In this document: one piece after another, positions 15,275 to 46,153 of the stretch
Numbering within the stretch: the first letter of the stretch is position 1
How the letters are laid out: every line of letters starts with the position of its first letter
Origin: a virus
Virus record (IMG/VR): IMGVR_UViG_3300021471_000006
Span: 45,486 to 109,485 of that record
Length of the DNA stretch: 64,000 bases
Direction: 5' to 3' (one strand)
The notes under the pieces: model-generated
Seen by the model: only the letters and a program-made list of their open reading frames with translations
What the model was told of the DNA's origin: nothing
Databases searched by the model: none
Position numbers and translations under genes: made by a program

Positions 15275-15284
15275 ATAAATTTTT

Positions 15285-15306
15285 TGGGGCATTTGCCCCA
15301 CTTTTC
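15285..15306 (+). terminator. Small hairpin after the Ubl gene
   Basis: TGGGGC (15285-15290) pairs with GCCCCA (15295-15300) around ATTT, followed by CTTTT. It may end part of the transcripts, giving more Ubl than enzyme messages. Confidence 0.6.
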
Positions 15307-15337
15307 ATATTCATTATACAATAAACGGAGGATTAAA

Positions 15338-16885: not shown

Positions 16886-16900
16886 ATGGAGGGAATTTAA

Positions 16901-19208: not shown

Positions 19209-19215
19209 GGAAGAT

Positions 19216-30436: not shown

Positions 30437-30997
30437 ATGGCAGATGAACAAGAAGTTAATCCAACTTTAGTCTTTAAGGATTTGCCCTTGATGGGAGACC
30501 CAATAAAGATTAGATTAGATTGTTTCGAGCCCGTAAAGACCGGAGAAAATAAATTTGGTAACTGGTATTTATGGTTTGGATATGTGGAGAACGCAACTGT
30601 ATGGAAAGGACGCAGACCACATCAGGAAAAAATAGAGAATTACAGTGGAAAGGTAATATTTTTTCCATCAGAGAAACTGAATGAAGAATTGATTGCGGCG
30701 GCTAATGGAAAGCTAGATGTAGAAGTTACAGTACAAAGACGAGCAGAAGAGGGCAGAAGGGGTTTAATAACTAAATACAAAGTAGAAAAGTTATCAAATG
30801 GAAGAGAGCCGATGAGTAGTTTAACTCCGGGCGAAGTCAAGTTATTAGAGAGTGTACAAAATCTTATAAATAGTGGAGTAGTAATAACAGAAGAAGACTT
30901 CATTAAAGCGGCTCAAGAACCAGAGTACGGCGGAAATATTAGTATACTGAGAAGCAAGCAACTATATGAGTACTTAATGAGTGACTCAACCAGCTAA
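30437..30997 (+). CDS. Possible OB-fold single-strand-binding protein
   Basis: ATG 30437 behind GGTGAG. 186 residues. The N-terminal 120 are strand-rich with several Trp and aromatic residues (FGNWYLWFGYVENATVWKG), as in OB-fold binders, followed by a helical C-terminal domain (GEVKLLESVQNLINSG). The place at the head of the replication genes supports SSB-like function, but no signature motif is seen. Confidence 0.4.
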   Translation: MADEQEVNPTLVFKDLPLMGDPIKIRLDCFEPVKTGENKFGNWYLWFGYVENATVWKGRRPHQEKIENYSGKVIFFPSEKLNEELIAAANGKLDVEVTVQRRAEEGRRGLITKYKVEKLSNGREPMSSLTPGEVKLLESVQNLINSGVVITEEDFIKAAQEPEYGGNISILRSKQLYEYLMSDSTS

Positions 30998-31007
30998 GGT
31001 TGATACT

Positions 31008-31262
31008 ATGGGATATCTCGATGAGCTTAAGAAGAAATACGAGAGTGAACCCAAGACTGTTCCTCTGGAAAAAATCCTTAGAAAGGAGGGCTATATATGG
31101 GTTAATATGCTCATAAGATATGACCTCACCGGTAAAGCAGAAATTGTGAGAGTCTTCTCACAACCAGCAAAACAGTCAATGATTAAAACTGTTAAAAAAG
31201 AGAAAAAAACATCTAAAGTAATTAAAATTGAGAAACCAGAGGAGACAAAATCATTATTTTAA
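31008..31262 (+). CDS. Small protein with possible PCNA-binding end
   Basis: ATG 31008. 84 residues; helix-strand core (YLDELKKKYESEP... GYIWVNMLIRYDLTGKAEIVRVF), then a Lys-rich tail ending EETKSLF. Ends in -SLF(-) after a flexible basic tail are typical of archaeal PIP-like peptides, so binding to the PCNA at 34602 is possible (inference). Confidence 0.45.
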   Translation: MGYLDELKKKYESEPKTVPLEKILRKEGYIWVNMLIRYDLTGKAEIVRVFSQPAKQSMIKTVKKEKKTSKVIKIEKPEETKSLF

Positions 31263-31263
31263 A

Positions 31264-31779
31264 ATGAAAATTTACACAAGAACCGGAGATAGAGGAGTTA
31301 CATCAACATTGAGTGGACAGCGAATACCGAAAGATGATTGTCTAATAAAAGTAAACGGCGAACTAGACGAACTACAAACACAAATAGATAAAGTTATTTC
31401 TTATATGAAGAGGTCAGTTTCTTTTGCTGAAACATTAGTTCAGCTTGAAAGAATACGAACTCTTCTCTGGCAATTGGGTGGAGAGATTTCTTTTGGTGAG
31501 AGAAACAACCTAGTTAAGCAGCCGATAATGAAATACGATGTCAAAGATTTAGAAAACTGGATAGATAACTTTAATCTAGAAATTAAGGGTTTTCAGAGGT
31601 TCTATAATCCTATTGCAATAGAAATAAACGAAGCTAGAGTGCGTACAAGGCGTTTAGAACGCACACTCACCAAGTATCTTAGAAAGAGAATTCTAAGAAT
31701 AGAAGTTTATATGTATCTAAATAGACTTAGTGACTATTTCTTTACACTGGCTGTAGCAATAGAAAACATAACAAAATAA
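31264..31779 (+). CDS. Cob(I)alamin adenosyltransferase, PduO type
   Basis: ATG 31264. 171 residues with the PduO/MMAB signature at the start (YTRTGDRGVTSTLSGQRIPKDD), the central R-x-x-LWQLGGEI region and the C-terminal E-x-R-x-R-x-x-RRLERTL cofactor site. It transfers adenosyl from ATP to cob(I)alamin and so makes adenosylcobalamin, the cofactor of the ribonucleotide reductase encoded 5 kb downstream. The two genes together would let the virus activate host B12 for dNTP synthesis. Confidence 0.85.
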   Translation: MKIYTRTGDRGVTSTLSGQRIPKDDCLIKVNGELDELQTQIDKVISYMKRSVSFAETLVQLERIRTLLWQLGGEISFGERNNLVKQPIMKYDVKDLENWIDNFNLEIKGFQRFYNPIAIEINEARVRTRRLERTLTKYLRKRILRIEVYMYLNRLSDYFFTLAVAIENITK

Positions 31780-31790
31780 GAGGTGAGACA

Positions 31791-32960
31791 ATGGACGAAT
31801 TAGAATTTATCTTTCATAACGACTGTATGGCTAAATTTAATCAGAGATTGTATTCCGGCATATTTACTGATGAAAATATAGTCAGCCCCAAGAAAGCAAT
31901 TAAAGTAAATGGAAGCAAATATTACGGTTATTTTCTTGAAAAAGGTAAAGAGAAATTTTTTGCTTTAAGTGAATTGGTTGAACGCCTTCCATTTAGAGTT
32001 ATGAATTCTGTAGAGACAGATTATAGAAATGACGTATTTAAAATAATTTCAAAAGTTGACCCCATTTCAATTCCATCCGAAAAGAGAATGGAATTTAGAA
32101 AACTAATAGATGTTATGCCCAAATTTAGACACACTAACCCTACTCACTGGACTCTGTATAAAATAGTATCTACTGCGGCATATGTAGACAGAATAAACAC
32201 AAGAATTTCTACTGATGCGGGATTTGGAAAAGATTCTGTAATAGCAATAATAGGGGGACTCGTTGATTCGACGGCTAACTTATATGGTGCAACCTTTGCA
32301 AAATTAGAATATGTGCTTACCAATAAGTTAATAGTTCTAAACGAGTTAGGTAATCTAAAGAAGGACGAACTTATAAATATGCAGGAATTTCTGTTAGCTA
32401 CTGGAGCTTTCTTTAATACTTATTTAAAGCGGTCTAGAAAAACGAATACGACGCAAGAACAATACGATATTAGTAATTTAAGTTTGTTGCTTTTTTATAA
32501 TCTTCCTAGTTATTATGTTAACAAGGCACAAGAATATTTTGACCAGATGTTTACAAAAGCAGTTATCAATCGTTTCATTCCTTTTACTTTTGAAGGGCAA
32601 CTAACTACTAAATTTGAGACATTATTAGATATCGACTATCTTGTAGAAAAATATGAGTCTTTATATAAAGACTGTATTGCAACACTAAATTACTTTAGAG
32701 AGAACAAAGTTAAAGAAATAAAATATAATGTGGATAGGTCGACCATCTATTTTCCAAAAGAGTTAATGAGATATTCAAGAACTTTCAATGTAATACTTAA
32801 ATACATATCTGAGTATTCTAAAGACCAAAAGGAATTTGATGTCTTGTCTAAAGAACTTTACAAATGTTATCTAAAATATAATACTCTAATAGAGGATAAA
32901 ACACAAATAGATAAACTTGTTACAGCCTTAGAAAAGGGGGCGGAGATTGAAATAAAATGA
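31791..32960 (+). CDS. Possible P-loop ATPase (helicase-like)
   Basis: 389 residues. Around residues 140-285 the order resembles an ATPase core: DAGFGKDSVIAIIGG (a non-standard Walker A), NKLIVLNELGNL (Walker B with N-E), LSLLLFYNLP (sensor-like Asn) and VINRFIPF (Arg). The N-terminal 130 and C-terminal 100 residues are helical. Its place in the replication operon would fit a replicative helicase or loader, but the Walker A is unusual. Confidence 0.45.
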   Translation: MDELEFIFHNDCMAKFNQRLYSGIFTDENIVSPKKAIKVNGSKYYGYFLEKGKEKFFALSELVERLPFRVMNSVETDYRNDVFKIISKVDPISIPSEKRMEFRKLIDVMPKFRHTNPTHWTLYKIVSTAAYVDRINTRISTDAGFGKDSVIAIIGGLVDSTANLYGATFAKLEYVLTNKLIVLNELGNLKKDELINMQEFLLATGAFFNTYLKRSRKTNTTQEQYDISNLSLLLFYNLPSYYVNKAQEYFDQMFTKAVINRFIPFTFEGQLTTKFETLLDIDYLVEKYESLYKDCIATLNYFRENKVKEIKYNVDRSTIYFPKELMRYSRTFNVILKYISEYSKDQKEFDVLSKELYKCYLKYNTLIEDKTQIDKLVTALEKGAEIEIK

Positions 32961-33070
32961 CAAAGAAAACAACATACAGCCAAGTGGTCAAGGATATTAA
33001 GTCAGCAAAAGAGTTTTGTGATTTAAACAAGATAACGCCAGAGATGGTAATAGTTGTGTGGAATGAATGA
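32957..33070 (+). CDS. Tiny protein (37 aa)
   Basis: ATGA start. TTYSQVVKDIKSAKEFCDLNKITPEMVIVVW, helix-strand. It ends in another ATGA overlap. Confidence 0.4.
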   Translation: MTKKTTYSQVVKDIKSAKEFCDLNKITPEMVIVVWNE

Positions 33071-33195
33071 CAAAAAAAGAACTTAACGGAGTTGGGGTTA
33101 GAATGAACCTGAGACCTACGAGCATAACAGATTCAAACGGATTGGCGTATTTTGAAAGGTGCAAGAGTAATATATTCAAAGAAAGATGGCTGTAA
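33067..33195 (+). CDS. Tiny protein (42 aa)
   Basis: ATGA start; no recognised motif. Its reading relies on the overlap chain. Confidence 0.35.
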   Translation: MTKKELNGVGVRMNLRPTSITDSNGLAYFERCKSNIFKERWL

Positions 33196-33211
33196 CTGAT
33201 AAGAAAGAAAA

Positions 33212-33436
33212 ATGACAGAACTAAAAACATTGAAAGATTTGTATCTTGGCGCTATTGGTATAAATTTAAAAGAAGCAATAAGAAAAGAATTAAAACAAGA
33301 AGCGATAAAGTGGATAAAATATTATAGAGAAAGAAGCAAGAGGCACGATTTGCCTGTTTTTGAAAGACCCATTTGTAAAAGGGTTGCAGATGTTTTTGAA
33401 ACTTTTTTCAACATAACAGAGGAAGATTTGAAATGA
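33212..33436 (+). CDS. Small helical protein (74 aa)
   Basis: ATG 33212. Basic amphipathic helices (LKEAIRKELKQEAIKWIKYYRERSK... ADVFETFFNITEEDL). It overlaps the RadA gene by an ATGA. Unknown. Confidence 0.5.
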   Translation: MTELKTLKDLYLGAIGINLKEAIRKELKQEAIKWIKYYRERSKRHDLPVFERPICKRVADVFETFFNITEEDLK

Positions 33437-34362
33437 ATGAACTATTAGAATTAAAAGGGTTGGGCGAGGCAACCTTAAAAAAACTCGATGACGCTGGCAT
33501 ATCTACTCTTATGGCTCTAGCAGTAAGTAATCCAGCAGAGGTTGCAGTAACTGCAGGCATTAGTGAGAGTATAGCTAGAAAACTTATACGACAAGCTAGG
33601 GATGGACTTAAGTTAGGTTTTGAGAAGGCAAAAGAATTTGCAAAGAAACGAGATTTAATTAAGAAGATTGGAATTGGCTGTTCTGGCTTCGACAATATTT
33701 TAGATGGGGGATTTGAGTCGGGAGCAATTACTGAAGTTTCTGGAAGAGACGGAACAGGTAAGACACAACTAGCACATTTACTTGTAGTAAGGGCATTAAA
33801 AGAGAGTCCAGAGAACAAAGCTATTTTTTTGGATACTGAAAATACTTTTAGAGGCGACAGAATAGCAGATTTTGCAATAGCTAACGAACTAGACCCAAAT
33901 GAAGTAATGGAACGCATTTATGTGGCTAGAGCATACAATTCAGACCATCAGATATTATTAGTAGACGAGATAGAAAAAATGTTGCAAAAAGACGACACAT
34001 TCAGAGTTTTGGTGGTAGACTCACTTACTTCTCACTTCAGAGCAGAATATATAGGGAGAGGCACATTAGCAGGACGACAGCAACTTCTTAATAAGCACAT
34101 GCACCATTTACTTAGACTAGCAGACTTGTATAATTTAGTAGTGCTCTGTACTAATCAGGTCATGAGTGACCCAGGACAATTTTATGGAGACCCAATTAAG
34201 CCTATAGGTGGAAATATTGTAGGCCATAACGCAACATTCAGAATTTATCTAAGACCCGGAAAGGCTGGAAGCACTTACGCTAAACTTGTGGAAAGTCCAA
34301 ATCTGCCACAGGCCGATTGTAATTTTTTAATTACTAAAAACGGCTTTGAGAACGTGAAATAA
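33433..34362 (+). CDS. radA: RadA recombinase
   Basis: 309 residues, close to the usual archaeal length. N-terminal helix-hairpin-helix domain (LLELKGLGEATLKKLDDAGISTLMALA), polymerisation linker, Walker A GRDGTGKT (104-111), Walker B in FRVLVVDSLTSHFRAEY, loops and GGNIVGHNATFRIYLR as in RadA. It forms filaments on single-stranded DNA for strand exchange in viral recombination-dependent replication or repair. Confidence 0.93.
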   Translation: MNELLELKGLGEATLKKLDDAGISTLMALAVSNPAEVAVTAGISESIARKLIRQARDGLKLGFEKAKEFAKKRDLIKKIGIGCSGFDNILDGGFESGAITEVSGRDGTGKTQLAHLLVVRALKESPENKAIFLDTENTFRGDRIADFAIANELDPNEVMERIYVARAYNSDHQILLVDEIEKMLQKDDTFRVLVVDSLTSHFRAEYIGRGTLAGRQQLLNKHMHHLLRLADLYNLVVLCTNQVMSDPGQFYGDPIKPIGGNIVGHNATFRIYLRPGKAGSTYAKLVESPNLPQADCNFLITKNGFENVK

Positions 34363-34363
34363 A

Positions 34364-34576
34364 ATGGAACTTGATTATAAATTTTGGAAAGAATATTATG
34401 AATCTGATTTAATAGGAAGACTTAATAAAATAAAACCTATAGTAGAGAACATAGAGAAAGCTTTATACATTAAAGACAAGATACTCAGAAAAAACGCTTT
34501 AACTACAATACTAAATGGTTACTTTGAAGATTTAGTAAACTTTATGTTGGGCGAGGCAAGAAGAGAAACAAAATGA
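34364..34576 (+). CDS. Small helical protein, paralogue of 25191 (70 aa)
   Basis: Aligned with the protein at 25191-25394 over most of its length (FWKEYYESDL, NIEKALYI, NGYFEDLVNF). It sits between RadA and PCNA genes. Unknown. Confidence 0.55.
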   Translation: MELDYKFWKEYYESDLIGRLNKIKPIVENIEKALYIKDKILRKNALTTILNGYFEDLVNFMLGEARRETK

Positions 34577-34601
34577 AATGTAAAGTAAGAGGAGATGCGT
34601 A

Positions 34602-35309
34602 ATGAAAATAAAAAGAGAAATATTAGAAGCCTTCTTAACGAAAGCTAGTCTAAATAAAAGAATAAAAACAATAAACTTAGACTTTACTGAAGAGGGAGTA
34701 AAGTCAGCAGTAATGGACACCTCTCAGATAGCAGTAACCTTTACCAGTCTTTCTAAAGAGGCTTTTGAAGAATATAAGGCTTTTGGAGAGATATATATTA
34801 AGAACTCAGAGCAACTATTAAATTACGTTAAGAGTTTCGGTGATATAATAGCGATAGAGAGAATAGGAGATTATAAACTTAAGTTATCTGGAAACGGAAG
34901 AGAAGTGTTTCTTATGCTTGGAGCAAAGATAGTATGTGATAACAAGTATGAGAAACCAGAACCCAAACTAGACTGGAAGACAACATTAGCAATAGATAAG
35001 CAAGTGCTCTATCGGCCTATACAAGATATGAGAGTTCTGGAAACGAATTGGATTAACATAACTGTAAAAGATAAAGAACTAATCTTACAGGTTGGAGACA
35101 TTGATGAAGCAGATTACACTAAACAAACTACTGAGGCTCCAGAAGGAGAAGGACAAATTAAACTTGGTGAGCTAATAGTAGATTTTTACAATTCTGTAGA
35201 AGACAAATTCACTATGAGTATAGGAAACAATATACCTGTATTGTTAAAAGAATCAACTGAATTTATAGACTTCACTTGTGTGATTGCACCGATAGTATCG
35301 GTGGAGTAA
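34602..35309 (+). CDS. PCNA-like sliding clamp
   Basis: 235 residues, near the 245-250 of archaeal PCNA. The repeating strand-helix pattern and the end (FTMSIGNNIPVLLKESTEFIDFTCVIAP), which matches the final strands of PCNA with the A-P near the C-terminus, support the call, as does the RFC gene right behind it. It would tether the family B polymerase to DNA. Confidence 0.75.
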   Translation: MKIKREILEAFLTKASLNKRIKTINLDFTEEGVKSAVMDTSQIAVTFTSLSKEAFEEYKAFGEIYIKNSEQLLNYVKSFGDIIAIERIGDYKLKLSGNGREVFLMLGAKIVCDNKYEKPEPKLDWKTTLAIDKQVLYRPIQDMRVLETNWINITVKDKELILQVGDIDEADYTKQTTEAPEGEGQIKLGELIVDFYNSVEDKFTMSIGNNIPVLLKESTEFIDFTCVIAPIVSVE

Positions 35310-35311
35310 AA

Positions 35312-36244
35312 ATGAACATTCCGTGGATTGAAAAATATAGACCTAGAGAATTTAATGAGGTTGTGGGCTTAAACACCGAAATTCTCAAGTTCAATGAGAT
35401 AATCAAGAAGCCTATGGAAATGCCAAACTTGATGTTTGTCGGTCCCCAAGGAACTGGAAAGACTAGTGTAGTAAAGATTATACTAGATAAACTAGCTCCT
35501 ATAGACGTGAAGCGAATTAACGGCAGTGATACAACTGGAGTAGACACGATTAGAAATGTAGTCTACAACTTTATAACTTCGATGTCTACAGAGCCAGATA
35601 AGCCCAAAATAGTTTGGATAGAAGAGTTTGACTTTATGAGCGATTCGGCATTTGCGGCACTGAGAGCTATGATGGAACAGTACATCAAGAATGCAAGATT
35701 TATAGTGACTTGCAACTATCCAGATAAGATTCCTGAACCTATAAGGTCTAGATTTGCAGAATTTAAATTCAATCCAGTAGCTAGTCAAGATATGTATTTC
35801 AAACTTGAAGAAATAAAGAATGCAGAAAGGGTGACTATTAGCCACGAAGCTTTGCTGAAACTGGTTCAGAAAAGTAGAGGAGATTTAAGAAGAGCGATTA
35901 ATACTCTTCAAGAGCTGTCAGCTAATGAATTAAATATTGTAAGCGATAAAGCAGTAGAGGAACTAGAAAGTCTTGCTACAAGAATCTATAATCTTATACT
36001 AAATCATGACTGGAGTAAAATAAGGTACGAAATACCACAAGAGTATCCAGATTATGATAATTTACTTGTGGAACTAGATGAATTATTTTTTCAATCAGAC
36101 CTTCCAACATATGTTAAGGCAAACATTAATGAAATCATAGCAGAAGGACAGTTTGAAATGGCATTTAGTTTTAATAAAGATATTTGCTTTGCGGCTATAG
36201 CAAGTAGATTAATAAAAGAGTTAGGAAGAATGAAAAATGCTTAA
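35312..36244 (+). CDS. Replication factor C small subunit
   Basis: ATG 35312. 310 residues: IPWIEKYRPREFNEVVG (RFC box), Walker A GPQGTGKT (44-51), Walker B IVWIEEFD, and RSRFAEFKFNP in place of the SRC motif. No large subunit is visible, so it may form a homo-pentamer or use the host large subunit. Confidence 0.88.
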   Translation: MNIPWIEKYRPREFNEVVGLNTEILKFNEIIKKPMEMPNLMFVGPQGTGKTSVVKIILDKLAPIDVKRINGSDTTGVDTIRNVVYNFITSMSTEPDKPKIVWIEEFDFMSDSAFAALRAMMEQYIKNARFIVTCNYPDKIPEPIRSRFAEFKFNPVASQDMYFKLEEIKNAERVTISHEALLKLVQKSRGDLRRAINTLQELSANELNIVSDKAVEELESLATRIYNLILNHDWSKIRYEIPQEYPDYDNLLVELDELFFQSDLPTYVKANINEIIAEGQFEMAFSFNKDICFAAIASRLIKELGRMKNA

Positions 36245-36449
36245 AGACTTAGAGAAAAGAATAATTGAAATGCTAGAGGATGACACTTGTAACTTTAGAG
36301 CACAGTGTGTAGCACAAGAATATGTTACAGAAACGGGGTGTAAAATATACCATCCAACTTGTCCACTATTTAAAGAATATATAAACAGGTATATACAATC
36401 CCAGATGGATAATTACATACGGAGAATAACTAAGAATGGGGAGAAATAA
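36237..36449 (+). CDS. Small Cys-rich protein (70 aa)
   Basis: Overlaps the RFC gene. CNFRAQC and CKIYHPTC contain four Cys that could hold zinc or an iron-sulfur cluster; the rest is helical. It stands just before the reductase gene; unknown role. Confidence 0.5.
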   Translation: MLKDLEKRIIEMLEDDTCNFRAQCVAQEYVTETGCKIYHPTCPLFKEYINRYIQSQMDNYIRRITKNGEK

Positions 36450-36452
36450 AAA

Positions 36453-39400
36453 ATGATTAACGGAGATAATGGAGTAGACAAGATATTTTTTAAGCTAAAG
36501 GATAGCTTTATAGAGAATTACAAAGACAAACAACCAGAATGGGGATATGGTGGTCTGGGCTATACGGTTTACAAACGTACATATGCTCGTCGCTTGAATG
36601 GTTCTACAGAAGAGTTCTGGCAAACTCTTAGAAGAGTAGTAGAGGGAGTTTTTACTATTCAAAAAAGACACTGTATTAGGAATTTAGTTCCTTGGTCAGA
36701 GCTTAAAGCCCAAAATTCGGCACAGAAAATGTTTAAGCTTATGTGGGAATTTAAATTCTTACCGCCGGGAAGAGGATTGTGGATGATGGGAACAGACTAT
36801 GTATACAAACGAGGCGGAATGTCATTAAATAATTGTGGATTTGTAAGCACGCAGAACATTACTACTAACTTTGCTGAGCCATTCTGTTTTCTAATGGACG
36901 CTTGTATGCTTGGAGTGGGAGTTGGAGCAGATACAAAAGGAGCCGGAAAGATGACTGTTAGAGAGCCAAAGATTTCAAATGAAGCATTTCTCATTCCAGA
37001 CACAAGAGAAGGGTGGGTAGAGGCTCTACGAAAAGTACTAAATGCTTTCTCTGGAGAAGGAGAGCTGCCAGCTAGTTTTGATAGTTCTTTAATTAGACCA
37101 TATGGAGAGCCCATAAATGGTTTTGGAGGAACAGCCTCTGGACCGGGACCACTGCTTGAGATGTTAGCAGATGTAGAGAAAGTACTCAGAAAAAGAATTG
37201 GAGAAAAGATAACATCAACTGATATTGTAGATATTTTTAATTTAATAGGGAGATGTGTAGTTGCCGGAAATGTAAGGAGAACTGCAGAAATAATGTTTGG
37301 TGAACAAGATGATGAAGAGTTTCTTAATCTTAAAAATCCAGAGATGTTTAAAACTGAACTTCTGCACCATCGTTGGGCCAGCAACAATTCCATTTTTGCA
37401 AAAGTTGGGATGGACTACTCAAAAGTTGCAGAACTTACTGCAAAGAATGGAGAACCCGGATATGAATGGTTAGACAATGCTAGAGCATTTTCAAGGATGG
37501 GAAAAGAACCAGATAATAAAGATTATAGAGCCGGTGGAGGCAATCCATGTTTGGAACAAACGCTTGAACCATATGAACTTTGCTGCGTAACTGGTGATAC
37601 CAGAATTCAAACACGGTCAGGTTTACCGAAAATTAAAGATGTCGTCGGCAAAACAGTTGAAGTGTGGAATGGCGTATGCTGGTCAAAGGTAAAACCATTT
37701 AAAGCCGGTAAAAACAAAAAAATACTGAGGGTATACATATCAGATGGTTCATACTTGGATTGTGATAAAAAGCACGAATTTTTAGTAAGAGAAAGAACAA
37801 AGAGAAGATACGTTAAAAAATATGCTAAAAATTTAAAGCCCGGAGACACGTTACCAGAATATTCTTTAGAACCAGACATGGGGGGAAAACACGTTGAAAA
37901 CGCATATGAATATGGTTTATTTGCCGGAGATGGATGTGTAGATAAAAATAATCCAATATTATGTATTGGAGGAGATAAAAACAAGTTAAAGAACAAAATT
38001 AAAGGAAAGTGGTATAAACCAAGAACCAACGAATATAATAAACCAATGTACAGAGTCTCTATGAAAAATATTCTAGATTTAGAAATGTGTAGACAATTAA
38101 GACAAAAAGAATTACCAGAGGATATTTTTAGTTGGGATTCCAATTCAATAATGGAGTTTATAGCGGGTTACATTGATTCTGATGGAAGTGTTGGAAAATA
38201 TGGTAATACACATAATTATAGAATATTTGGCCTAGAACAAAAGATGCGAGACCTTCAAATTTTGTGTAGAAGAATAGGTATAAACCATGCTACAGTTAAC
38301 TTAATGTCAAAAAAAGGGACTAAAACTAATTTTGGTACTAGAAACGAAGATTTGTGGTTCTTATATATACCAACATATGAATGTGCGGGAATTCCAACAA
38401 GATTAAAAATAGCAACTAAATTTGGAAGTGGTTTAAAAAATAATAACGCGCATGTTAATGGAAGGCAAATTTCTTATAAACGAAGACAAAAGATTGTTGG
38501 TATAACTGAAAAATTACAAAGAGAAGACACATATTGTTTTACAGAGCCAATGTATAATATGGGCGTGTTTGGTAACGTTTTAACATTTCAATGTCTTGTT
38601 GAAACTTTTCCAGTTAAGCACAATACACTTGAAGAGTGGATAGAGACACTTAAATACGCATATTTATATGCGAAAACTGTCACACTTATTCCTACACATA
38701 ATAAGCTTACAAATGCTGTTATGTTAAGAAATAGGAGAATAGGTTGTTCAATATCTGGAATTACTCAAGCTTTCAAGAAGTTTGGCCGACGACATTTTTT
38801 TGAAAAAATAGACGAGGGCTATAAGAGAATCCAGGATTGGGACAAGACTTTTTCAGACTGGATGTGTATTCCCAGGAGCATCAAGATGACTTCTATAAAG
38901 CCGTCTGGCACCGTTTCGCTGTTGCCTGGTGTAACTCCTGGAATACATTATCCAATATCTGAATACTATATACGCAATGTGAGATTTATGAAAGGCAGTA
39001 AACTGCTTGAGAAACTAGAGAAAGCCGGATATCTAGTAGAGAAAGATAAATATACTGATAATACTTATGTAGTGAGCTTTCCAATAAAAGAAGAATACTT
39101 CGAAAGAAGTGTCAACGACGTTTCAATGTGGGAGCAATTAGAGAATGTAGCGCAAATTCAAGAGCATTGGGCAGACAATCAGGTAAGTGTCACTGTTAGC
39201 TTTAAAGATTACGAAGCTAAAGATATTAAATATGCTTTAGAACTTTACGAAACTAGACTGAAAGGTGTGAGTTTTTTGCCTATTAAAGACCATGGATATG
39301 AGCAAGCGCCTTATATACCCATAACAGAGAAGGAGTTTAAAAACTTAAGACGAAAAATAAAAGATAAAAATTTATTAGGCAAGATAACTAACTCAATACA

Positions 39401-39461
39401 CGAAATAGATGATAAGTTTTGTGATAGTACAACTTGTGAAATTGAGGTGGAATTAACATGA
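36453..39461 (+). CDS. Adenosylcobalamin-dependent ribonucleotide reductase with intein
   Basis: 1002 residues before splicing, about 666 after. The reductase parts match class II ribonucleoside-triphosphate reductases: NNCGFVST near 130, GNVRRTAEIMFG, NPCLEQTLEPYELCC (active-site region), and KPSGTVSLLPGVTPGIHYPISEYYIRNVR. The C-terminal CDSTTCEIE pair could serve as the redox Cys. An intein (residues 378-713) splits the NPCLEQ...ELC/CLVETFP motif, so splicing is needed for activity. It supplies dNTPs and needs adenosylcobalamin, which the enzyme at 31264 can make. Confidence 0.9.
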   Translation: MINGDNGVDKIFFKLKDSFIENYKDKQPEWGYGGLGYTVYKRTYARRLNGSTEEFWQTLRRVVEGVFTIQKRHCIRNLVPWSELKAQNSAQKMFKLMWEFKFLPPGRGLWMMGTDYVYKRGGMSLNNCGFVSTQNITTNFAEPFCFLMDACMLGVGVGADTKGAGKMTVREPKISNEAFLIPDTREGWVEALRKVLNAFSGEGELPASFDSSLIRPYGEPINGFGGTASGPGPLLEMLADVEKVLRKRIGEKITSTDIVDIFNLIGRCVVAGNVRRTAEIMFGEQDDEEFLNLKNPEMFKTELLHHRWASNNSIFAKVGMDYSKVAELTAKNGEPGYEWLDNARAFSRMGKEPDNKDYRAGGGNPCLEQTLEPYELCCVTGDTRIQTRSGLPKIKDVVGKTVEVWNGVCWSKVKPFKAGKNKKILRVYISDGSYLDCDKKHEFLVRERTKRRYVKKYAKNLKPGDTLPEYSLEPDMGGKHVENAYEYGLFAGDGCVDKNNPILCIGGDKNKLKNKIKGKWYKPRTNEYNKPMYRVSMKNILDLEMCRQLRQKELPEDIFSWDSNSIMEFIAGYIDSDGSVGKYGNTHNYRIFGLEQKMRDLQILCRRIGINHATVNLMSKKGTKTNFGTRNEDLWFLYIPTYECAGIPTRLKIATKFGSGLKNNNAHVNGRQISYKRRQKIVGITEKLQREDTYCFTEPMYNMGVFGNVLTFQCLVETFPVKHNTLEEWIETLKYAYLYAKTVTLIPTHNKLTNAVMLRNRRIGCSISGITQAFKKFGRRHFFEKIDEGYKRIQDWDKTFSDWMCIPRSIKMTSIKPSGTVSLLPGVTPGIHYPISEYYIRNVRFMKGSKLLEKLEKAGYLVEKDKYTDNTYVVSFPIKEEYFERSVNDVSMWEQLENVAQIQEHWADNQVSVTVSFKDYEAKDIKYALELYETRLKGVSFLPIKDHGYEQAPYIPITEKEFKNLRRKIKDKNLLGKITNSIHEIDDKFCDSTTCEIEVELT
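37584..38591 (+). mobile_element. Intein with LAGLIDADG endonuclease
   Basis: About 336 residues inserted between ELC and CLVETFP. It begins CVTGDTRI (Cys1 block A), has block B-like SDGSYLDCDKKHEFLV, two LAGLIDADG-type motifs (YGLFAGDGCV and FIAGYIDSDGSV) and ends GVFGNVLTFQ before Cys+1. The last residue is Gln, not the usual Asn, as known for some reductase inteins. Confidence 0.88.
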
Positions 39462-39526
39462 TATACTTTGAACTTCAAGAAGATGGAAGTGCATCTTTCG
39501 AATATACAATATTTATAGAAGAATGA
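39458..39526 (+). CDS. Micro-ORF (22 aa)
   Basis: ATG in an ATGA overlap with the reductase stop, and its own TGA overlaps the next ATG. 22 residues (MIYFELQEDGSASFEYTIF). It may act mainly to couple translation of the two large genes. Confidence 0.35.
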   Translation: MIYFELQEDGSASFEYTIFIEE

Positions 39527-41016
39527 AAATAAACAACTATGAAGAGTTTCAGAGAAAGTCTTATCATTTTAAGATAAACAAGAGTTTCAATACTAGAACT
39601 GAACTCTCTCCAAGAATTCTAGAGATATCTGAAGCCTTTGGATTGGGCGTCAGCGAGTTAAAAAAATTTTCAGTGTTTGAAGATTTCTATATTGGCTTTA
39701 ATAAAGGTGAAATTATTTATATTACTGGAGATTCTGGAGGCGGTAAGAGTATACTGCTTAAGGAACTAAACAAGAGACTTATGATGGAAGGGAGTAGAAT
39801 TTTTCTAAGTTCTATAATTCCTAATCCAGAAGATGTTATAGTAGAGTCAATAGGAAAGACTACTGAAGAGGCAGTCAGATTACTTTCTGTAATGGGACTT
39901 AATGATGCATTTATCTTTCTTAGAAAATATAAAGAACTTAGTGATGGTCAAAAATACAGATATAGGCTTGCTAAGATGTTAGAAACTGGCATGGACTTCT
40001 ATTTCATCGATGAATTTTGTGCTAAACTAGACCGCATAACTGCCAAAGTAATAGCATACAACTTACAGAAAGTTGTCAGGCGAACCGGCGTCACTCTGTT
40101 TATCGCTACTACTCACTTGGATTTGATTACTGACCTAAATCCAGACATATTAGTTACAAAAAACTATATGGATAAAGTAAAGATTGAATATTTAACTCAT
40201 GAAAAAAGAAAAATCAGCTTTTATAATAAAGTGAAAATCGAAAGAGGTGTTATAGATGACTATAAGAAACTGGCGAAATTTCATTACAAGAATCCCAGTA
40301 CAGACTTCCCGTACTCGAGAATATATTGTGCAAGAATGGGAACGGAACTTGTTGGAACTTGCGTCTATAGTCCTCCCTTTTTACAAACAAAAGGAAGAAC
40401 AATTAAATTTGATGGAAAATATAGCTTAATGAAGAAAGAAGTGGTAGCTGAAATCAATAAGCTTTTTATTAGATGTTCTAGAATAGTAATTTCTCCAAAG
40501 TTCAGAGGCTGTGGACTTGGACAGAAATTGCTGCTTGAGTCTATGAAACTACAGAAAGATAAAAAATATGTAGAACTTATCAATATTATGGGAAAATATA
40601 ATCCATTTGCGGACAGAGTCGGCATGGAGAAAATAGAGATTAGCGAGGAGACAGACGCACCCACAATTGCTCTGGATAAATGGTTATGTGAAAAAGGTCT
40701 TAAGACCGATGAAATTCACAATCCAGTCTACTGGAGACAGTTTGTGGAATCTCTATCTCCTGCCGACAAAATCACTCTAACTAGAATGACTGGCAAAGTA
40801 CTTCACCATCCTAAGATAGGTCTATCGAGCAAGGAAGGCAAGAGGGCTGAAGTCGTTAGAAAAGAAAAGATTTATAAAGAGGTAGATTTTAATACGGTAA
40901 AAGAAGAAATTATAGACTATGTTCCAAAACTATATTCGGGACATACTCTATATTATATCTGGATAAATCCAGATTACCAAGAGAAAAAAATGAAAACAAT
41001 TGAAGAGTGGTTTTAA
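39523..41016 (+). CDS. ABC-type ATPase fused to acetyltransferase (COG2401 type)
   Basis: 497 residues. The N-terminal half is an ABC ATPase: ITGDSGGGKSILL (Walker A), LSDGQKYRYRLAKML (signature), FYFIDEFCAKLD (Walker B), ATTHLDL (switch His). The C-terminal half is a GNAT domain with IVISPKFRGCGLGQKLLLESM. This fusion is known as COG2401 in archaea, with unknown function. No membrane partner is seen, so it is not a transporter. A perfect B repeat (40081-40098) lies within the ATPase part. Confidence 0.8.
   Translation: MKINNYEEFQRKSYHFKINKSFNTRTELSPRILEISEAFGLGVSELKKFSVFEDFYIGFNKGEIIYITGDSGGGKSILLKELNKRLMMEGSRIFLSSIIPNPEDVIVESIGKTTEEAVRLLSVMGLNDAFIFLRKYKELSDGQKYRYRLAKMLETGMDFYFIDEFCAKLDRITAKVIAYNLQKVVRRTGVTLFIATTHLDLITDLNPDILVTKNYMDKVKIEYLTHEKRKISFYNKVKIERGVIDDYKKLAKFHYKNPSTDFPYSRIYCARMGTELVGTCVYSPPFLQTKGRTIKFDGKYSLMKKEVVAEINKLFIRCSRIVISPKFRGCGLGQKLLLESMKLQKDKKYVELINIMGKYNPFADRVGMEKIEISEETDAPTIALDKWLCEKGLKTDEIHNPVYWRQFVESLSPADKITLTRMTGKVLHHPKIGLSSKEGKRAEVVRKEKIYKEVDFNTVKEEIIDYVPKLYSGHTLYYIWINPDYQEKKMKTIEEWF
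40081..40098 (-). repeat. B repeat inside a gene (exact copy)
   Basis: Read on the minus strand it is CAGAGTGACGCCGGTTCG, identical over 18 bases with 7752-7769. Confidence 0.65.
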
Positions 41017-41046
41017 AAATGAATCATGAAAACGGTGACAGCCAAA

Positions 41047-41571
41047 ATGAGTAATCTAACAGATGAGTTTAAGAAATTAGTATTTAAGAAAGAAATGCCA
41101 GATACTAATTTATTAGTTCCATTGATGATTTGGTTATCTGGAGACTACCTTAATATAGAAAACACGCAACTGGTGAATTTGAGATTTAAAAATATAGCGA
41201 AAAATATAAATATGAGAAGTTTATTACTAAAGAATAGAGTAAAACGCTTCCTTCGATACCCAAAGGTGAAGAAAGATAAAGACAGACTTAAATTCTTTTA
41301 TGACGACGTGTGTAAATACTTTGGGTGGTCAAGTCGTGAACTGCAGAAAAACAATCGTGTTTTGGAGTGGAACGAAGTTAAGATAGCAGTTTCCAAAGCG
41401 TTTGGATATGATAAAAAAGAACTGAAAATACTGGAGGGGTACAATGGGAAAAGATTTGGAAACAAGAGTAATAAAACTTCTAAAACAACGACGATGGACA
41501 AAAAAAGAGCTAGCCACAACATTAGAAATACCGCAAACGAAGATACTAGCAATATTAAGAATATTAGATAA
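41047..41571 (+). CDS. Unknown 174-residue protein
   Basis: The ATG at 41047 lies behind GGTGA (41034-41038); ATG 41026 is an alternative. Helical N-terminal domain (residues 1-110) with basic patches (LLLKNRVKRFLRYPKVKKDK), Lys/Asn/Thr-rich disordered end that overlaps the next gene by 128 bases. It could be a DNA-binding accessory of the polymerase (inference). Confidence 0.5.
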   Translation: MSNLTDEFKKLVFKKEMPDTNLLVPLMIWLSGDYLNIENTQLVNLRFKNIAKNINMRSLLLKNRVKRFLRYPKVKKDKDRLKFFYDDVCKYFGWSSRELQKNNRVLEWNEVKIAVSKAFGYDKKELKILEGYNGKRFGNKSNKTSKTTTMDKKRASHNIRNTANEDTSNIKNIR

Positions 41572-42382
41572 AAAAGGAGTCGATATATCAAAATTTGGAA
41601 AAGGAAAAGACAAAGAATTTTATTTATCTACCTCACCAGAAAGCTCGCAACCACAGTATGTGGTACTATCTGGTGTTAAATCGTCTCCACAAAAAATTAA
41701 ATTTGCGTTAACATCAGATTGGCATGTGGGAAGTATACAACACAACAGAAGCGGACTTGAGGACTGCATTCAAAGAGCAGTTGATGAGGGAGCTAAATTT
41801 GTCTTACATGCTGGAGATGTTCATGATGGATATAAAGTATATCGAGGACAACTTAACAATTTAACCGTGTGGAGAGCAGAAGACCAAACAGACTTAAGTG
41901 CGGATATTATAGATAGATTCCCTATACCAGTATACGGAATTGCAGGAAATCATGACTACAGTTATACTAAATTAGCAGGAATTAGACCTACCAAACTATT
42001 GGCATCTAAAACAGACAACTTTAAAGACCTTGGAGATGCCAGAGCAGATTTAGTAATTGGAGGAATTGAATTGAGATTATTACATGGAGCTGGAGGCAAT
42101 GCTTATGCAATAAGTTATCCGGCACAAAAATATCTTAGAAATATTGCAAGAGGTGACCCATCTGCAATACCTGAGATGTTGGGATTAGGACATTATCATA
42201 CTAACACTCAATTTGAAAGCCATGATTGTGTAGTAATTCATCCAGGTAACTTTCAGGGACCAAATGAGTTTACTGAAAGAAGAGGACTATTAGGTCCCAT
42301 GGGATTATATGTTGTAGAACTTACAACACAAGATGGAACTATTCTAAATTATAAAACTAAATTTTTAAAAGCAAGAAGTTGA
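41444..42382 (+). CDS. Winged-helix plus metallophosphoesterase fusion 1
   Basis: 312 residues. N-terminal winged helix (RVIKLLKQRRWTKKELATTLEIPQTKILAILRIL), then a calcineurin-like domain with LTSDWHVGS, HAGDVHDG, GIAGNHDY, LLHGAGG and GHYHTNT, all metal ligands in place. It lies just before the polymerase. A nuclease or phosphatase directed to DNA by the winged helix is inferred. A paralogue is encoded at 46092. Confidence 0.75.
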   Translation: MGKDLETRVIKLLKQRRWTKKELATTLEIPQTKILAILRILDKKGVDISKFGKGKDKEFYLSTSPESSQPQYVVLSGVKSSPQKIKFALTSDWHVGSIQHNRSGLEDCIQRAVDEGAKFVLHAGDVHDGYKVYRGQLNNLTVWRAEDQTDLSADIIDRFPIPVYGIAGNHDYSYTKLAGIRPTKLLASKTDNFKDLGDARADLVIGGIELRLLHGAGGNAYAISYPAQKYLRNIARGDPSAIPEMLGLGHYHTNTQFESHDCVVIHPGNFQGPNEFTERRGLLGPMGLYVVELTTQDGTILNYKTKFLKARS

Positions 42383-42406
42383 AATATATGATATGTTGGT
42401 GAGACA

Positions 42407-44779
42407 ATGGTTTTTTTAGTGGAATCTATTCAAAGAGACAAGTATACAGAACTAATTCTCTTTCAAAGAGATAAAGACGGCAAGAAGTCTTATAAGATAG
42501 TAAAGGACTTCAGACCTAGATTCTTTGTTCCAGAAAGTGACCCAGTACCAGAAGATAGGAGAATAACTGGTGTAAAGAGCGGCTATAAAGACATAGATAA
42601 TAATCCAGTAAAAAAAATCTATACGCAAAAGTCAGTACATGTGCCAGAACTAAGAGACAGATTTTCCAAACACTATGAGGCTGATATTTTGTTCACTCAT
42701 AGATATATAATAAATCGTATAGGTCCTATAGAGCCGTATCCACTGAAAATTCTCTATATAGATATTGAATTGAATACTGTGGATAGTTTTCCAGATATGT
42801 TTGACCCAGACCAAGAGATAGTAACTATTTCTATGGTTGATAGTTTTGATAACAGAGAGATTCTTCTTTATTATGAAAGTCCAGAATGTAAAAAACCAAT
42901 TAAAGAAACTGAAACTATTAAGAAATTTAAAACAGAAGAAGATTTACTCAATGCATTTATAGTCCAGATGCAGAAATATGACCCAGATGTGATAACAGGA
43001 TGGAACATAGAGAAATTTGACCTGACTTATTTGATTAGAAGAATGGAGAAACTTGGATTAAATTATAGAAAACTTTCTCCACTATATTCAGTTAGAATAG
43101 ATGAAAAGTGGGGCGACGTAATGATTAAAGGAAGAGTAATTCTGGACATGATGAAGGGCTACAAATATTTTAGAAAGATTTCAAATCAAGGACGAGCTGA
43201 AAGTTATTCATTAGAATACACTGCTCAAGAAGTATTAAAAAAGGGAAAGATACCACATAAAGATAATTTTCACGACATGTGGATAAATAGTCCAGAAAAA
43301 CTCATAGAATATAACAAAAGAGATACATTATTAGTTAAAGAAATAAATGATACTTTAAACATAATTGATTTCTTTAATTCTATTCGCTGTAAAGCATGCG
43401 CTCAGCTCAGAGATATATATTCAACTTCTAAACTTACAGACGGTTTTCTTCTCAGAAAATGTAGAGATAAATATGTTCTTCCAAGTGGAAATAGAAACAT
43501 ATCTGATATAGAAAAATACTCTGGAGCGATAGTAATCAAACCAACTCCGGGAATTTATAAAAATGTAATTGGATTGGATATTAGCAGTATGTATCCAAAT
43601 TTGATGAAAACTTTTAACATAGGTTATGAGACCTTTAATCCAGATGGAGAAATACAATTAGCCGACGGAATAGGTTTTAATAACGGCATAGGTCTTATTT
43701 CTGAGACTCTTAGAGAACTTGAGCAAGAGAGAAACTACTGGAAGAAAAAAATGAGAAAGGCTGCTATAGAGAAAGACGAAGACAAAAGACAGCTTTATTA
43801 TTTTAATCAATATGCTGTCAAGGTAATAACAAATGCAATATACGGATATCTTGGATATCCAAGGTCTAGATTATACAAGAAAGAAGTAGCAGGGGCCGTT
43901 ACTACTGCCGGAAGAGAATTAATTATGTACACGAAACGAAAAGTCGAAGAACTTGGTTATAAAGTTTTATATGGAGATACGGATAGTGTATATGTTCAGG
44001 CAAAGAGTAATGGACTAATTCCACTTTTAACTGAAGGAAAGAAATTGTGTGACATATTGAATAAAAGTTATAAAGATTTTGCAAAAGAAAGGGGTGCAAA
44101 AATATGTACATTAAGTATGAAATTTGAAAAAGCCTTAAAAAGTATTATGTTTGTTTCAAAACGTGGAGAGAATGTTGGAGCAAAAAAGAAATATGCTTAT
44201 TTACCTCTTTGGATAGATGGTAAAAACGTTGAAGATAAAGTAGAGTTTACGGGATTTGAAACGATTCGTTCAGATACTCCTAGAATAGGAAGACTAGTTC
44301 AGAAGAAAGTAGTAGATATGGTTCTACACGGAGTTGAGAAAGAAAAAGTACTGGAGTACTTGAGAGACCTAGATAGAAAAATTAGAAACAAAGAAATTCC
44401 AGATGAAGAAATAGGTTTTCCAAAAGGCATTTCAAGTCCATTAAGAACTTACGGAAAACAAAAACGACACGGTAAGACTAATATAAGAATCGGCATTCCT
44501 CCAGTAGTAAAAGGCGCTCTATATGCAAATAAATACTTAGGAAAACGATATGGACAGGGAAGTAAACCTAAGTGGATTTATGTGAAAAGAGTTTCTCCGG
44601 GATTTCCAGAAACAGATGTAATTACTTATGATGAATTTATTCCAGAAGGTTTCATACCAGATTATGACGCAATAAATAAAAGAATTTTCGATTTTAAATT
44701 ATCTGAAATATTTAGAGCTGCGGGGTGGGGAGATTTTCCAGAATTAAATCAAAATACTTTAAACAAGTGGGGGATGTAA
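42407..44779 (+). CDS. polB: Family B DNA polymerase
   Basis: 790 residues, usual for archaeal and viral PolB. Exonuclease motifs DIELN (Asp119, Glu121), GWNIEKFDLTYL and YNKRDTLLV; polymerase motif A DISSMYPN (from Asp391), motif B-like KVITNAIYGYLGYP, motif C YGDTDSVYV (Asp524, Asp526). The proofreading residues appear intact. It is the replicative polymerase of the virus. Confidence 0.95.
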   Translation: MVFLVESIQRDKYTELILFQRDKDGKKSYKIVKDFRPRFFVPESDPVPEDRRITGVKSGYKDIDNNPVKKIYTQKSVHVPELRDRFSKHYEADILFTHRYIINRIGPIEPYPLKILYIDIELNTVDSFPDMFDPDQEIVTISMVDSFDNREILLYYESPECKKPIKETETIKKFKTEEDLLNAFIVQMQKYDPDVITGWNIEKFDLTYLIRRMEKLGLNYRKLSPLYSVRIDEKWGDVMIKGRVILDMMKGYKYFRKISNQGRAESYSLEYTAQEVLKKGKIPHKDNFHDMWINSPEKLIEYNKRDTLLVKEINDTLNIIDFFNSIRCKACAQLRDIYSTSKLTDGFLLRKCRDKYVLPSGNRNISDIEKYSGAIVIKPTPGIYKNVIGLDISSMYPNLMKTFNIGYETFNPDGEIQLADGIGFNNGIGLISETLRELEQERNYWKKKMRKAAIEKDEDKRQLYYFNQYAVKVITNAIYGYLGYPRSRLYKKEVAGAVTTAGRELIMYTKRKVEELGYKVLYGDTDSVYVQAKSNGLIPLLTEGKKLCDILNKSYKDFAKERGAKICTLSMKFEKALKSIMFVSKRGENVGAKKKYAYLPLWIDGKNVEDKVEFTGFETIRSDTPRIGRLVQKKVVDMVLHGVEKEKVLEYLRDLDRKIRNKEIPDEEIGFPKGISSPLRTYGKQKRHGKTNIRIGIPPVVKGALYANKYLGKRYGQGSKPKWIYVKRVSPGFPETDVITYDEFIPEGFIPDYDAINKRIFDFKLSEIFRAAGWGDFPELNQNTLNKWGM

Positions 44780-44781
44780 AG

Positions 44782-45867
44782 GTGATACAATTAAAAACAA
44801 TTCAAGATTTTTGCAAAAACGCATCATATATTATGGTTAGATTTGAAAAAACAGAAAATGAAGAATTTGGAAAGATACTTACTAATAAGGAAATAATGAA
44901 TTTAGACCTATCAAAGAATGAAATAAGAAGAAGTATAACTAATGTTAATGATGACAGACTTTTCGTGTTTGACCTTCTTCCAGAAGAGGGAGGAGTAACA
45001 CATAATAGTCCACTACAATTAGTAAAGAGCAATCTAAAAGATGCAAGAATTATAGAGAAAGTTTATCCACAAATATTCTCTTGGGCATTCGATGGAGTGA
45101 GTATTAGATGTTATGCGATAATTCCTTCTGGAAATCCAAAGGCACATTCAACTATAAGTCGTTATGGTGGAACAGATATGTTTTATAAGATTTTAAGACA
45201 ACATCTTAAAAATATTGCAAACATGAGCAGGGGCAAGACACCAGATTATAATTTTCTACAATGTCAAGAGAGAGTTCCAGAGACAGAAATAGCAATAGGC
45301 TCTATAAATAGATTTAATAACATGTATGCAATAGGAATAGGCTTGAAAAGTTCATATATAGACATAATTAGTAACAGTATAAATAATAAAAATGCCTTGA
45401 GACCTTTAAAAACTTTAAATATGAAATATTGGGCTAGAGAAATTAATCCAGACTTCATAGTAGAAGCAAAATATGTGAAACTGAAAGAGCCGTTAGAGCT
45501 AGATTTAAAGGAAGCATACGAGCTTTATCCTAAAGCTATAAAAAATCTTATGGCTTTGCCTCACAAGGGCAACTATCAGAGATTTCTATTAACTCGGTTT
45601 CTTCTTTCAGTTCATAAACCAAGTGACGCAAAATTTATTTATTATTCAGTACTTGGCGATGAAGACTTAAAGCATGTAAAATATGGAAATTGTAAAACAC
45701 AATGGAACTATATACTTAACAATATGTATAGATATAGTTGTCCAACGTTTCAAGAATTAAGCCAATATGCGGACCCAGAGGATGAGGGTCTTTCTCATCC
45801 TCTTGAAAAAATTCAAAAATACATGGACGAGAAGAAAAATGGTGAGAACTCGAAAGATAAACTATAA
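44782..45867 (+). CDS. Primase with PriL-like C-terminal domain
   Basis: The start is uncertain: GTG 44782 overlaps AAAGGTGA, and ATT 44791 is possible. About 361 residues. The C-terminal part (ALPHKGNYQRFLLTRFLL... VKYGNCKTQWNYILNNMYRYSCPTFQELSQY) matches the iron-sulfur domain of the large primase subunit, including the LPH-x-x-RF-like segment and later Cys. The N-terminal part has an acidic strand (RLFVFDLLPEE) and PSGNPKAH, which may be a diverged AEP catalytic site, so a PriS-PriL fusion is possible. Confidence 0.6.
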   Translation: MIQLKTIQDFCKNASYIMVRFEKTENEEFGKILTNKEIMNLDLSKNEIRRSITNVNDDRLFVFDLLPEEGGVTHNSPLQLVKSNLKDARIIEKVYPQIFSWAFDGVSIRCYAIIPSGNPKAHSTISRYGGTDMFYKILRQHLKNIANMSRGKTPDYNFLQCQERVPETEIAIGSINRFNNMYAIGIGLKSSYIDIISNSINNKNALRPLKTLNMKYWAREINPDFIVEAKYVKLKEPLELDLKEAYELYPKAIKNLMALPHKGNYQRFLLTRFLLSVHKPSDAKFIYYSVLGDEDLKHVKYGNCKTQWNYILNNMYRYSCPTFQELSQYADPEDEGLSHPLEKIQKYMDEKKNGENSKDKL

Positions 45868-46153
45868 ATATGAGACATATAAACTCAGAAAACATACAAA
45901 AGTTTTAAATGACATTATAAAAAAATTAAATAACCAAACAAAAGTTATGCACGACAATATGATTTTTTTGAAAAAATATGCAGAAGAACAAGGTACAAAG
46001 ACATTTGAATACAAAAAAGAGAGAATAAAACTTTTGGAAAAAATAAAAGAATTAGAAACAGAACTTAAAAACTTAAAGGAGTTGAGAAAAAGTGAACGAA
46101 AAACCGTTAAGCGAAAGCCAGTTAAAAGTGCTTCTAACACTAGAAGAAAATGA
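45839..46153 (+). CDS. Coiled-coil protein (104 aa)
   Basis: ATG 45839, overlapping the primase gene. Basic, with a coiled coil from about residue 30 to 85 (LLEKIKELETELKNLKELRK) and a Lys/Arg-rich end. Unknown. Confidence 0.5.
   Translation: MVRTRKINYKYETYKLRKHTKVLNDIIKKLNNQTKVMHDNMIFLKKYAEEQGTKTFEYKKERIKLLEKIKELETELKNLKELRKSERKTVKRKPVKSASNTRRK

What the first reader, a model, noticed from the sequence alone, without database searches (positions are those of the whole stretch)
31264..39461. Virus encodes both a B12-dependent ribonucleotide reductase and the enzyme that makes its cofactor
Seen: PduO-type adenosyltransferase and class II reductase in one operon with replication genes. Known: PduO makes adenosylcobalamin, which class II reductases need. 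Inference: the virus frees itself from the host's control of cofactor activation, the rate-limiting step being host cobalamin supply.
Basis: partly seen in the sequence, partly recalled or inferred. Interest (0 to 1): 0.6.

Follow-up and report, generated by a model that had tools for sequence, protein, structure and literature searches.

The report
Archaeal virus makes its reductase's cofactor
A tailed virus, probably of an archaeon, carries a vitamin-B12-dependent enzyme that makes DNA building blocks together with an enzyme that turns B12 into the active form it needs; the idea is known from one ocean cyanophage, but this pair uses an unrelated activating enzyme that also turns up, mostly alongside a B12-type reductase, in several huge bacteriophages.

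Summary
31264-31779 encodes a PduO-type ATP:corrinoid adenosyltransferase (ATR) that keeps every ATP- and cobalamin-contacting residue checked. 36453-39461 encodes a monomeric class II (AdoCbl-dependent, RTPR-type) ribonucleotide reductase interrupted by a 336-aa intein. Both lie on one strand in a replication gene cluster of a 109-kb tailed-virus record. Co-occurrence is real: two related viruses (G014, G019) carry the pair. A close relative (G004) has the same operon and reductase but lacks exactly the ATR gene, so the ATR is an accessory booster. The concept is precedented: cyanophage P-SS2 has class II nrd plus the non-homologous CobO, and haloarchaeal tailed viruses carry CobST. What is new is the PduO kind of ATR in viruses, possibly a single virus-borne lineage, with a shortened loop next to the cobalt-facing Phe. 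Verdict: new variant of a known kind, interest moderate.

The parts
31264..31779 (+). PduO-type ATP:corrinoid adenosyltransferase, 171 aa; active-site residues K23, D35, F113, R125, R129, E132, R133, N153, D157 (human MMAB K78, D90, F170, R186, R190, E193, R194, N214, D218)
31600..31638 (+). shortened segment between the Co-facing Phe (F113) and the first ATP-site Arg (R125): 12 residues against 16 in nearly all cellular ATRs
36453..39461 (+). monomeric class II (RTPR/NrdJ) ribonucleotide reductase precursor, 1002 aa (666 aa after splicing); C128, C366, C377 and the C-terminal C654/C659 pair (spliced numbering) correspond to RTPR C119, C408, C419 and its terminal thiol pair
37584..38591 (+). 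in-frame intein (336 aa, LAGLIDADG_3 homing domain, starts Cys, ends Gln before +1 Cys) inserted right behind the active-site Cys that aligns with RTPR C419
   Evidence: the intein-free relative L018 reads ELCCLVETY across the site
30981..31262 (+). 93-aa gene directly upstream of the ATR (1-bp gap); in L008 its counterpart abuts the 389-aa gene with no ATR between
31791..32960 (+). conserved 389-aa protein of unknown function with a P-loop-like GFGKDS motif, directly downstream of the ATR
   Evidence: no Pfam match; model unusable
33433..34362 (+). RadA/Rad51 recombinase
   Evidence: nearest cultured relatives are haloarchaeal tailed viruses, about 30% identity
34602..35309 (+). PCNA-like sliding clamp
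35312..36244 (+). RFC-small-type clamp loader
39523..41016 (+). ABC-type ATPase fused to GNAT domain, kept next to the reductase in L006, L008, L018 and L022
42407..44779 (+). family B DNA polymerase

Best explanation
A tailed virus, probably of an archaeon, expresses its own monomeric class II reductase, which reduces NTPs to dNTPs for genome replication, and its own PduO-type ATR, which binds MgATP and host cob(II)alamin, forces it four-coordinate so that a host flavoprotein can reduce it to cob(I)alamin, and adenosylates it to AdoCbl. The ATR raises or restores the AdoCbl supply for the viral reductase during infection, both by charging inactive host cobalamin and by re-charging the cob(II)alamin that class II reductases lose through side reactions. 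Shown here: gene identities, intact catalytic residues, shared gene cluster, recurrent co-occurrence with a reductase, accessory status. Inferred: activity, cofactor hand-over to the reductase, benefit in infection.
For: ATR and RTPR identity. All human MMAB residues checked are present: K78, F170, R186, R190, E193, R194, N214, D218; roles of K78, R190, E193, R194 and F170 are from PMC8633584. 33 of 45 family-conserved columns are kept against 28 of 125 other columns (p 3e-9). The pair recurs in G014 (same gene order) and in G019, where the ATR lies between RadA and PolB and the reductase runs off both contig ends. ATR-bearing IMG/VR records of at least 43 kb: 12 of 14 fetched, plus the window, carry a reductase alpha gene, against 4 of 22 tRNA-sampled records of like size. 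By lineage 4 of 5 against 4 of 22, p 0.017. ATRs of the huge-phage group have dN/dS of about 0.05-0.10, so viral ATRs are kept functional.
Against: Nothing was assayed. Most class II reductase viruses have no ATR: 1 of 18 nearest IMG/VR records, and only contaminant-looking PduO hits in INPHARED against 1489 reductase-like records. L008/G004 has the gene cluster and reductase without the ATR (a 43-kb fragment). Sister huge phages without ATR also carry the reductase, so there the association comes from a reductase-rich background. The ATR-bearing phage G045/G046 shows no reductase in 74 kb. The window's ATR scores just under the TIGR00636 cut-off, and the archaeal-virus clade has a shortened loop and lost the Arg after NRLSDxxFxLA (V164).
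Confidence: 0.72

Rival explanations
1. The ATR serves host B12 enzymes (for example mutases or other AdoCbl enzymes) to redirect host metabolism, and its presence beside the reductase is incidental.
For: G045/G046 carry an ATR without a detected reductase; in the huge phages the ATR is not next to the reductase (L032: ATR near 67 kb, reductase near 85-87 kb).
Against: No AdoCbl-dependent enzyme other than the reductase was seen in the window virus. Reductase co-occurrence is far above the comparison sample. In G014 and the window the ATR sits among DNA replication genes.
Confidence: 0.12
2. The ATR is mainly a cobalamin carrier or reloading chaperone: it binds AdoCbl or cob(II)alamin and hands it to the viral reductase, with catalysis secondary.
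For: Human ATR is both enzyme and AdoCbl escort (PMC8633584). Viral ATRs share a shortened loop next to the Co-facing Phe: 11-13 residues against 16 in 105 of 107 cellular ATRs plus human MMAB.
Against: All catalytic ATP-site residues are conserved, which pure binding would not require. The loop is also short in one true bacterial ATR (L124).
Confidence: 0.1
3. The ATR is decaying or catalytically altered, a recently acquired passenger gene.
For: Sub-threshold TIGR00636 score; long branches and shortened loop; absence in L008.
Against: Every checked catalytic residue is kept in three viruses whose ATRs are only 41-52% identical to the window's. Base composition matches neighbouring genes. The model is confident and folds as a PduO ATR.
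Confidence: 0.06

Closest known systems
Cyanophage P-SS2 class II nrd (ORF 011) plus cobO (ORF 036), PMC2784084
   Same: One viral genome encodes a class II reductase and a corrinoid adenosyltransferase.
   Different: CobO/BtuR is a non-homologous ATR family; the two P-SS2 genes are about 14 kb apart, not in a replication cluster; the host is a cyanobacterium; the reductase is a cyanobacterial type of 857 aa.
CobST cobaltochelatase genes of archaeal tailed viruses (Druskaviridae, Saparoviridae) and cyanophages, PMC8651126
   Same: Archaeal tailed viruses boosting cobalamin supply, suggested to help class II reductase.
   Different: They act at cobalt insertion in de novo synthesis, not at adenosylation, and need host CobN.
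PduO-type ATRs: human MMAB (2IDX/6D5X), L. reuteri PduO (3CI1, 2NT8), B. cereus (3KE5)
   Same: Fold, ATP-site and Co-facing residues.
   Different: The window's ATR is about 28-33% identical to these structures, has 4 residues fewer between the F170 and R186 equivalents, and lacks the C-terminal Arg.
Lactobacillus leichmannii RTPR (1L1L), monomeric class II reductase
   Same: Catalytic cysteines, insertion domain, monomeric RTPR profile.
   Different: The window's enzyme carries an intein behind the C419 equivalent and is remote in sequence.
RTPR-carrying virioplankton, PMC10547690
   Same: Viral B12-dependent monomeric reductases.
   Different: The passages I read there do not mention viral ATRs; most such viruses found here lack one.

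Membership tests
PduO-type ATP:corrinoid adenosyltransferase | profile membership (PF01923 / TIGR00636) | tested here: met
   PF01923 116 bits, cut-off 24; TIGR00636 102.8 bits, slightly under the equivalog cut-off 108.45
PduO-type ATP:corrinoid adenosyltransferase | ATP-binding and Co-facing residues (human K78, R186, R190, E193, R194, F170, N214, D218; D90) | tested here: met
   all identical at the aligned positions; roles of K78, R190, E193, R194, F170 from PMC8633584
PduO-type ATP:corrinoid adenosyltransferase | five-helix PduO fold | tested here: met
   AlphaFold pLDDT 90.7; top Foldseek hits all PduO ATRs, TM 0.79-0.84
PduO-type ATP:corrinoid adenosyltransferase | homotrimer with active site between subunits | not testable with these tools
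   only single chains can be modelled
PduO-type ATP:corrinoid adenosyltransferase | FILPGG segment (16 residues from Phe to Arg) and the Arg after the NRLSD helix motif (common in the family, not known to be essential) | tested here: not met
   12 residues, no GG, V164 instead of Arg; shortening is shared by other viral ATRs, so read as clade-specific, not as loss of membership
class II ribonucleotide reductase, monomeric RTPR type | TIGR02505 equivalog and class II insertion domain PF21995 | tested here: met
   352.9 bits > 340.05; PF21995 62 bits > 27
class II ribonucleotide reductase, monomeric RTPR type | catalytic cysteines and Glu (RTPR C119, C408, E410, C419) and terminal thiol pair | tested here: met
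   LNNC, NPCLE, ELC align with 1L1L; KFCDSTTC gives a C-X4-C pair, though only its second Cys falls on C731 in the alignment
class II ribonucleotide reductase, monomeric RTPR type | no separate radical-generating small subunit | tested here: met
   no PF00268 match in the 109-kb record; record may be incomplete
class II ribonucleotide reductase, monomeric RTPR type | AdoCbl requirement and NTP substrate | not testable with these tools
   needs an assay of the spliced enzyme
CobA/CobO/BtuR adenosyltransferase (P-SS2 type) | PF02572 match | tested here: not met
   no match in this record or in 19 related records

The most novel reading that the evidence does not exclude
There is a virus-specific lineage of PduO adenosyltransferases, shared by tailed viruses with archaeal replication genes and several groups of huge bacteriophages, that travels independently of its neighbours, has a trimmed loop at the cobalamin face, and has been adapted to load or reload AdoCbl into viral class II reductases.
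Probability: 0.25. Interest if true: 0.62.

Novelty: new variant of a known kind. Interest (0 to 1): 0.45.

Why it matters
Viral B12-dependent reductases are common, and it is usually assumed that such viruses must infect hosts that supply finished B12. A viral ATR would loosen that rule for the final activation step and gives a clean natural comparison (G000/G014 with ATR, G004 without, same gene cluster) to test whether AdoCbl supply limits viral DNA synthesis. Two unrelated ATR families recruited by viruses with class II reductases (CobO in P-SS2, PduO here) argue that adenosylation is a real bottleneck for some viruses.

Tried and rejected
A single-sequence IMG/VR scan with the ATR found no relatives; the two-virus alignment did. 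INPHARED ATR hits were rejected as phage genes: the Acinetobacter record lies among trp, btuB and other chromosomal genes, and the Listeria and Enterococcus hits are unannotated records, several only 2-3 kb. PF02867 alone was too weak to type reductases, so phrog_367 and TIGR02505 were used. A literature search for viral PduO found none: PMC10507051 names pduO in a section on MAGs and isolates, PMC11671562 and PMC7678222 concern other adenosyltransferases. The idea that short loops are strictly viral was rejected: L124, a bacterial chromosomal contig with pur genes, has one too. Whether the archaeal-virus and huge-phage ATRs are one clade stays open: holding them together raises lnL by 11.9, p-AU 0.75, but long branches are in play. 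dN/dS for the window's own ATR clade was not attempted because the proteins are too diverged. Host assignment was not achieved; only one archaeal phylum could be sampled, through one genome handle. The structure of the 389-aa neighbour was unusable. Sigma-70 promoter scanning gave no excess over shuffles.

Full report
What is there. The window is bases 45486-109485 of a 109,485-base IMG/VR virus record. The rest of the record encodes a terminase with two inteins, portal, tail tube, tape-measure and putative capsid proteins and a sugar-modification cluster, so it is a tailed virus. RadA, PCNA, RFC-small and PolB, with haloarchaeal tailed viruses as the nearest cultured relatives of PolB and RadA, make an archaeal host likely; which one is unknown.

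The adenosyltransferase. ATG 31264 to stop 31779, one base behind the stop of the upstream gene. PF01923 116 bits; TIGR00636 102.8 bits, a little under its cut-off. Against human MMAB, whose active site is described in PMC8633584, the residues that hold ATP (K78, R190, E193, R194), face the cobalt (F170) and the further conserved R186, N214, D218 and D90 are all present as K23, R129, E132, R133, F113, R125, N153, D157 and D35. Across 80 cellular ATRs, 45 columns are at least 90% conserved; the window keeps 33 of them against 28 of 125 other columns (p 3e-9). The AlphaFold model is confident and its best structural matches are PduO-type ATRs only.

The reductase. The precursor passes the curated cut-off for AdoCbl-dependent RTPR, carries the class II insertion domain and aligns with L. 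leichmannii RTPR through the catalytic cysteines. There is no class I small subunit in the record. A 336-aa intein with a LAGLIDADG domain sits directly behind the Cys that aligns with RTPR C419; it starts with Cys and ends with Gln before a Cys, as do the homologous inteins of G019 and L006. The intein-free relative L018 reads straight through the same site. So the enzyme needs splicing to be active; that is inferred, not shown.

Co-occurrence. In IMG/VR the reductase finds 18 relatives, of which one whole record (G014) also has a PF01923 gene. An alignment of the window and G014 ATRs finds 30 ATR-bearing viral records. G014 has the window's gene order, from the 103-aa gene through ATR, 389-aa gene, RadA, PCNA, RFC, reductase and ABC-GNAT to PolB. 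G019 (96.7 kb, reductase running off both contig ends) has the ATR between RadA and PolB, and there the ATR is the most window-like gene of those compared that have a known function (52% against 45% for RadA and 34% for PolB; only an HNH-like gene scores higher), which suggests that the ATR moves independently. Among ATR-bearing records of at least 43 kb, 12 of 14 carry a reductase alpha gene, all but G045/G046, which are 99.98% identical over the 20-kb stretch compared. Counting the window, that is 13 of 15 against 4 of 22 metagenomic viral contigs of like size sampled through a tRNA motif, which themselves have no ATR. Fisher p is 5e-5 by record and 0.017 by lineage, 4 of 5 against 4 of 22. 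Caveats: the lineage definition is mine and was made after seeing the data; the comparison sample was tested with the broader phrog_367 model only; and in the huge-phage group the reductase is also present in relatives without ATR.

Accessory status. L008/G004 has the same gene cluster and a reductase 64% identical to the window's, but the 93-aa-gene counterpart runs straight into the 389-aa-gene counterpart with no ATR between, and no PF01923 or PF02572 match in its 43 kb. The ATR is therefore a one-gene accessory. ATRs of the huge-phage group are under strong purifying selection, dN/dS about 0.05-0.10.

An unasked-for feature. The segment between the Co-facing Phe and the first ATP-site Arg is 16 residues in 105 of 107 cellular ATRs examined and in human MMAB, but 12 in the three archaeal-virus ATRs, 13 in the huge-phage group and L051, and 11 in L032. 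The exceptions are G045's ATR (16; it nests among bacterial ATRs, and its phage has no detected reductase) and one bacterial chromosomal ATR (12; L124). The viral ATRs may be one clade (lnL higher by 11.9 when held together, p-AU 0.75), but long branches prevent a firm claim.

How it most likely works. ATR + ATP + host cob(II)alamin + host flavoprotein electrons give AdoCbl, which the spliced viral reductase uses to make dNTPs; ATR may also re-adenosylate cobalamin lost by inactivation. The last step is inferred from known class II chemistry. The virus shows no corrinoid synthesis, transport or redoxin gene in the Pfam scans of most of its larger ORFs (only the 25 most-matched families of each scan are displayed), so independence from the host is partial.

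Comparison. P-SS2 already combines class II nrd with CobO (PMC2784084; tblastn confirms a BtuR-like gene there), a review counts cobO in 37 of 153 cyanophages (PMC10452541), and archaeal tailed viruses carry CobST (PMC8651126). No paper found in the held library describes a viral PduO ATR, PHROGs v4 gives no match for it, and INPHARED shows no credible phage copy. Hence: new variant of a known kind.

Noticed in passing
window 14891-19545: A cluster that looks like a ubiquitin-like conjugation cassette: 473-aa protein with a JAMM-like motif (WHKHPGSASHSSVDEED, 16901-18322), a ThiF/E1-like protein (18276-19208; weak PRTRC_ThiF and Cap2/3-like matches), a 533-aa unknown and a small 127-aa protein whose end looks beta-grasp-like.
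   Followed up: no
window 37584-38591; L155, L156, L165: Inteins crowd the reductase active site in this virus group: one in the window, several in G019 and L006 (behind NNC, at NPC and ELC sites), none in L018 or L008. The ELC-site intein ends in Gln rather than Asn in all three viruses that have it.
   Followed up: partly
L004 990-5048 and L003 12317-14599 (record 40990-45051, 32317-34602): The terminase large subunit carries two inteins and a DegT-type sugar aminotransferase carries one, so this one virus has at least four inteins.
   Followed up: no
L003 9000-19200 (record about 29-39 kb): Sugar-modification cluster: glycosyltransferases, GDP-mannose dehydratase, DegT aminotransferase, SIS (GmhA-like), GHMP kinase, nucleotidyltransferase and HAD phosphatase, resembling a nucleotide-activated heptose pathway in an archaeal virus.
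   Followed up: no
window 39523-41016: ABC-type ATPase fused to a GNAT domain, kept immediately downstream of the reductase in all four related loci that show this region.
   Followed up: partly
window 31791-32960: 389-aa protein of unknown function with an invariant GFGKDS motif, 47-63% identical to its counterparts in three related viruses; beside the ATR site in the window, L026 and L008.
   Followed up: partly
window 2630-3172: GNAT-like ORF whose C-terminal end (ATYSEAYPDDCGLDIYGD) looks like the start of a dUTPase domain, then stops.
   Followed up: no
G035, G042 (L042, L049): Huge phages of 206-221 kb that carry two diverged class II reductases and two copies of the HAD gene, besides a PduO ATR.
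   Followed up: no
window 41444-42382 and 46092-47246: Two calcineurin-type phosphoesterases flanking PolB; the second resembles the small subunit of archaeal DNA polymerase D and phage exonuclease families.
   Followed up: no
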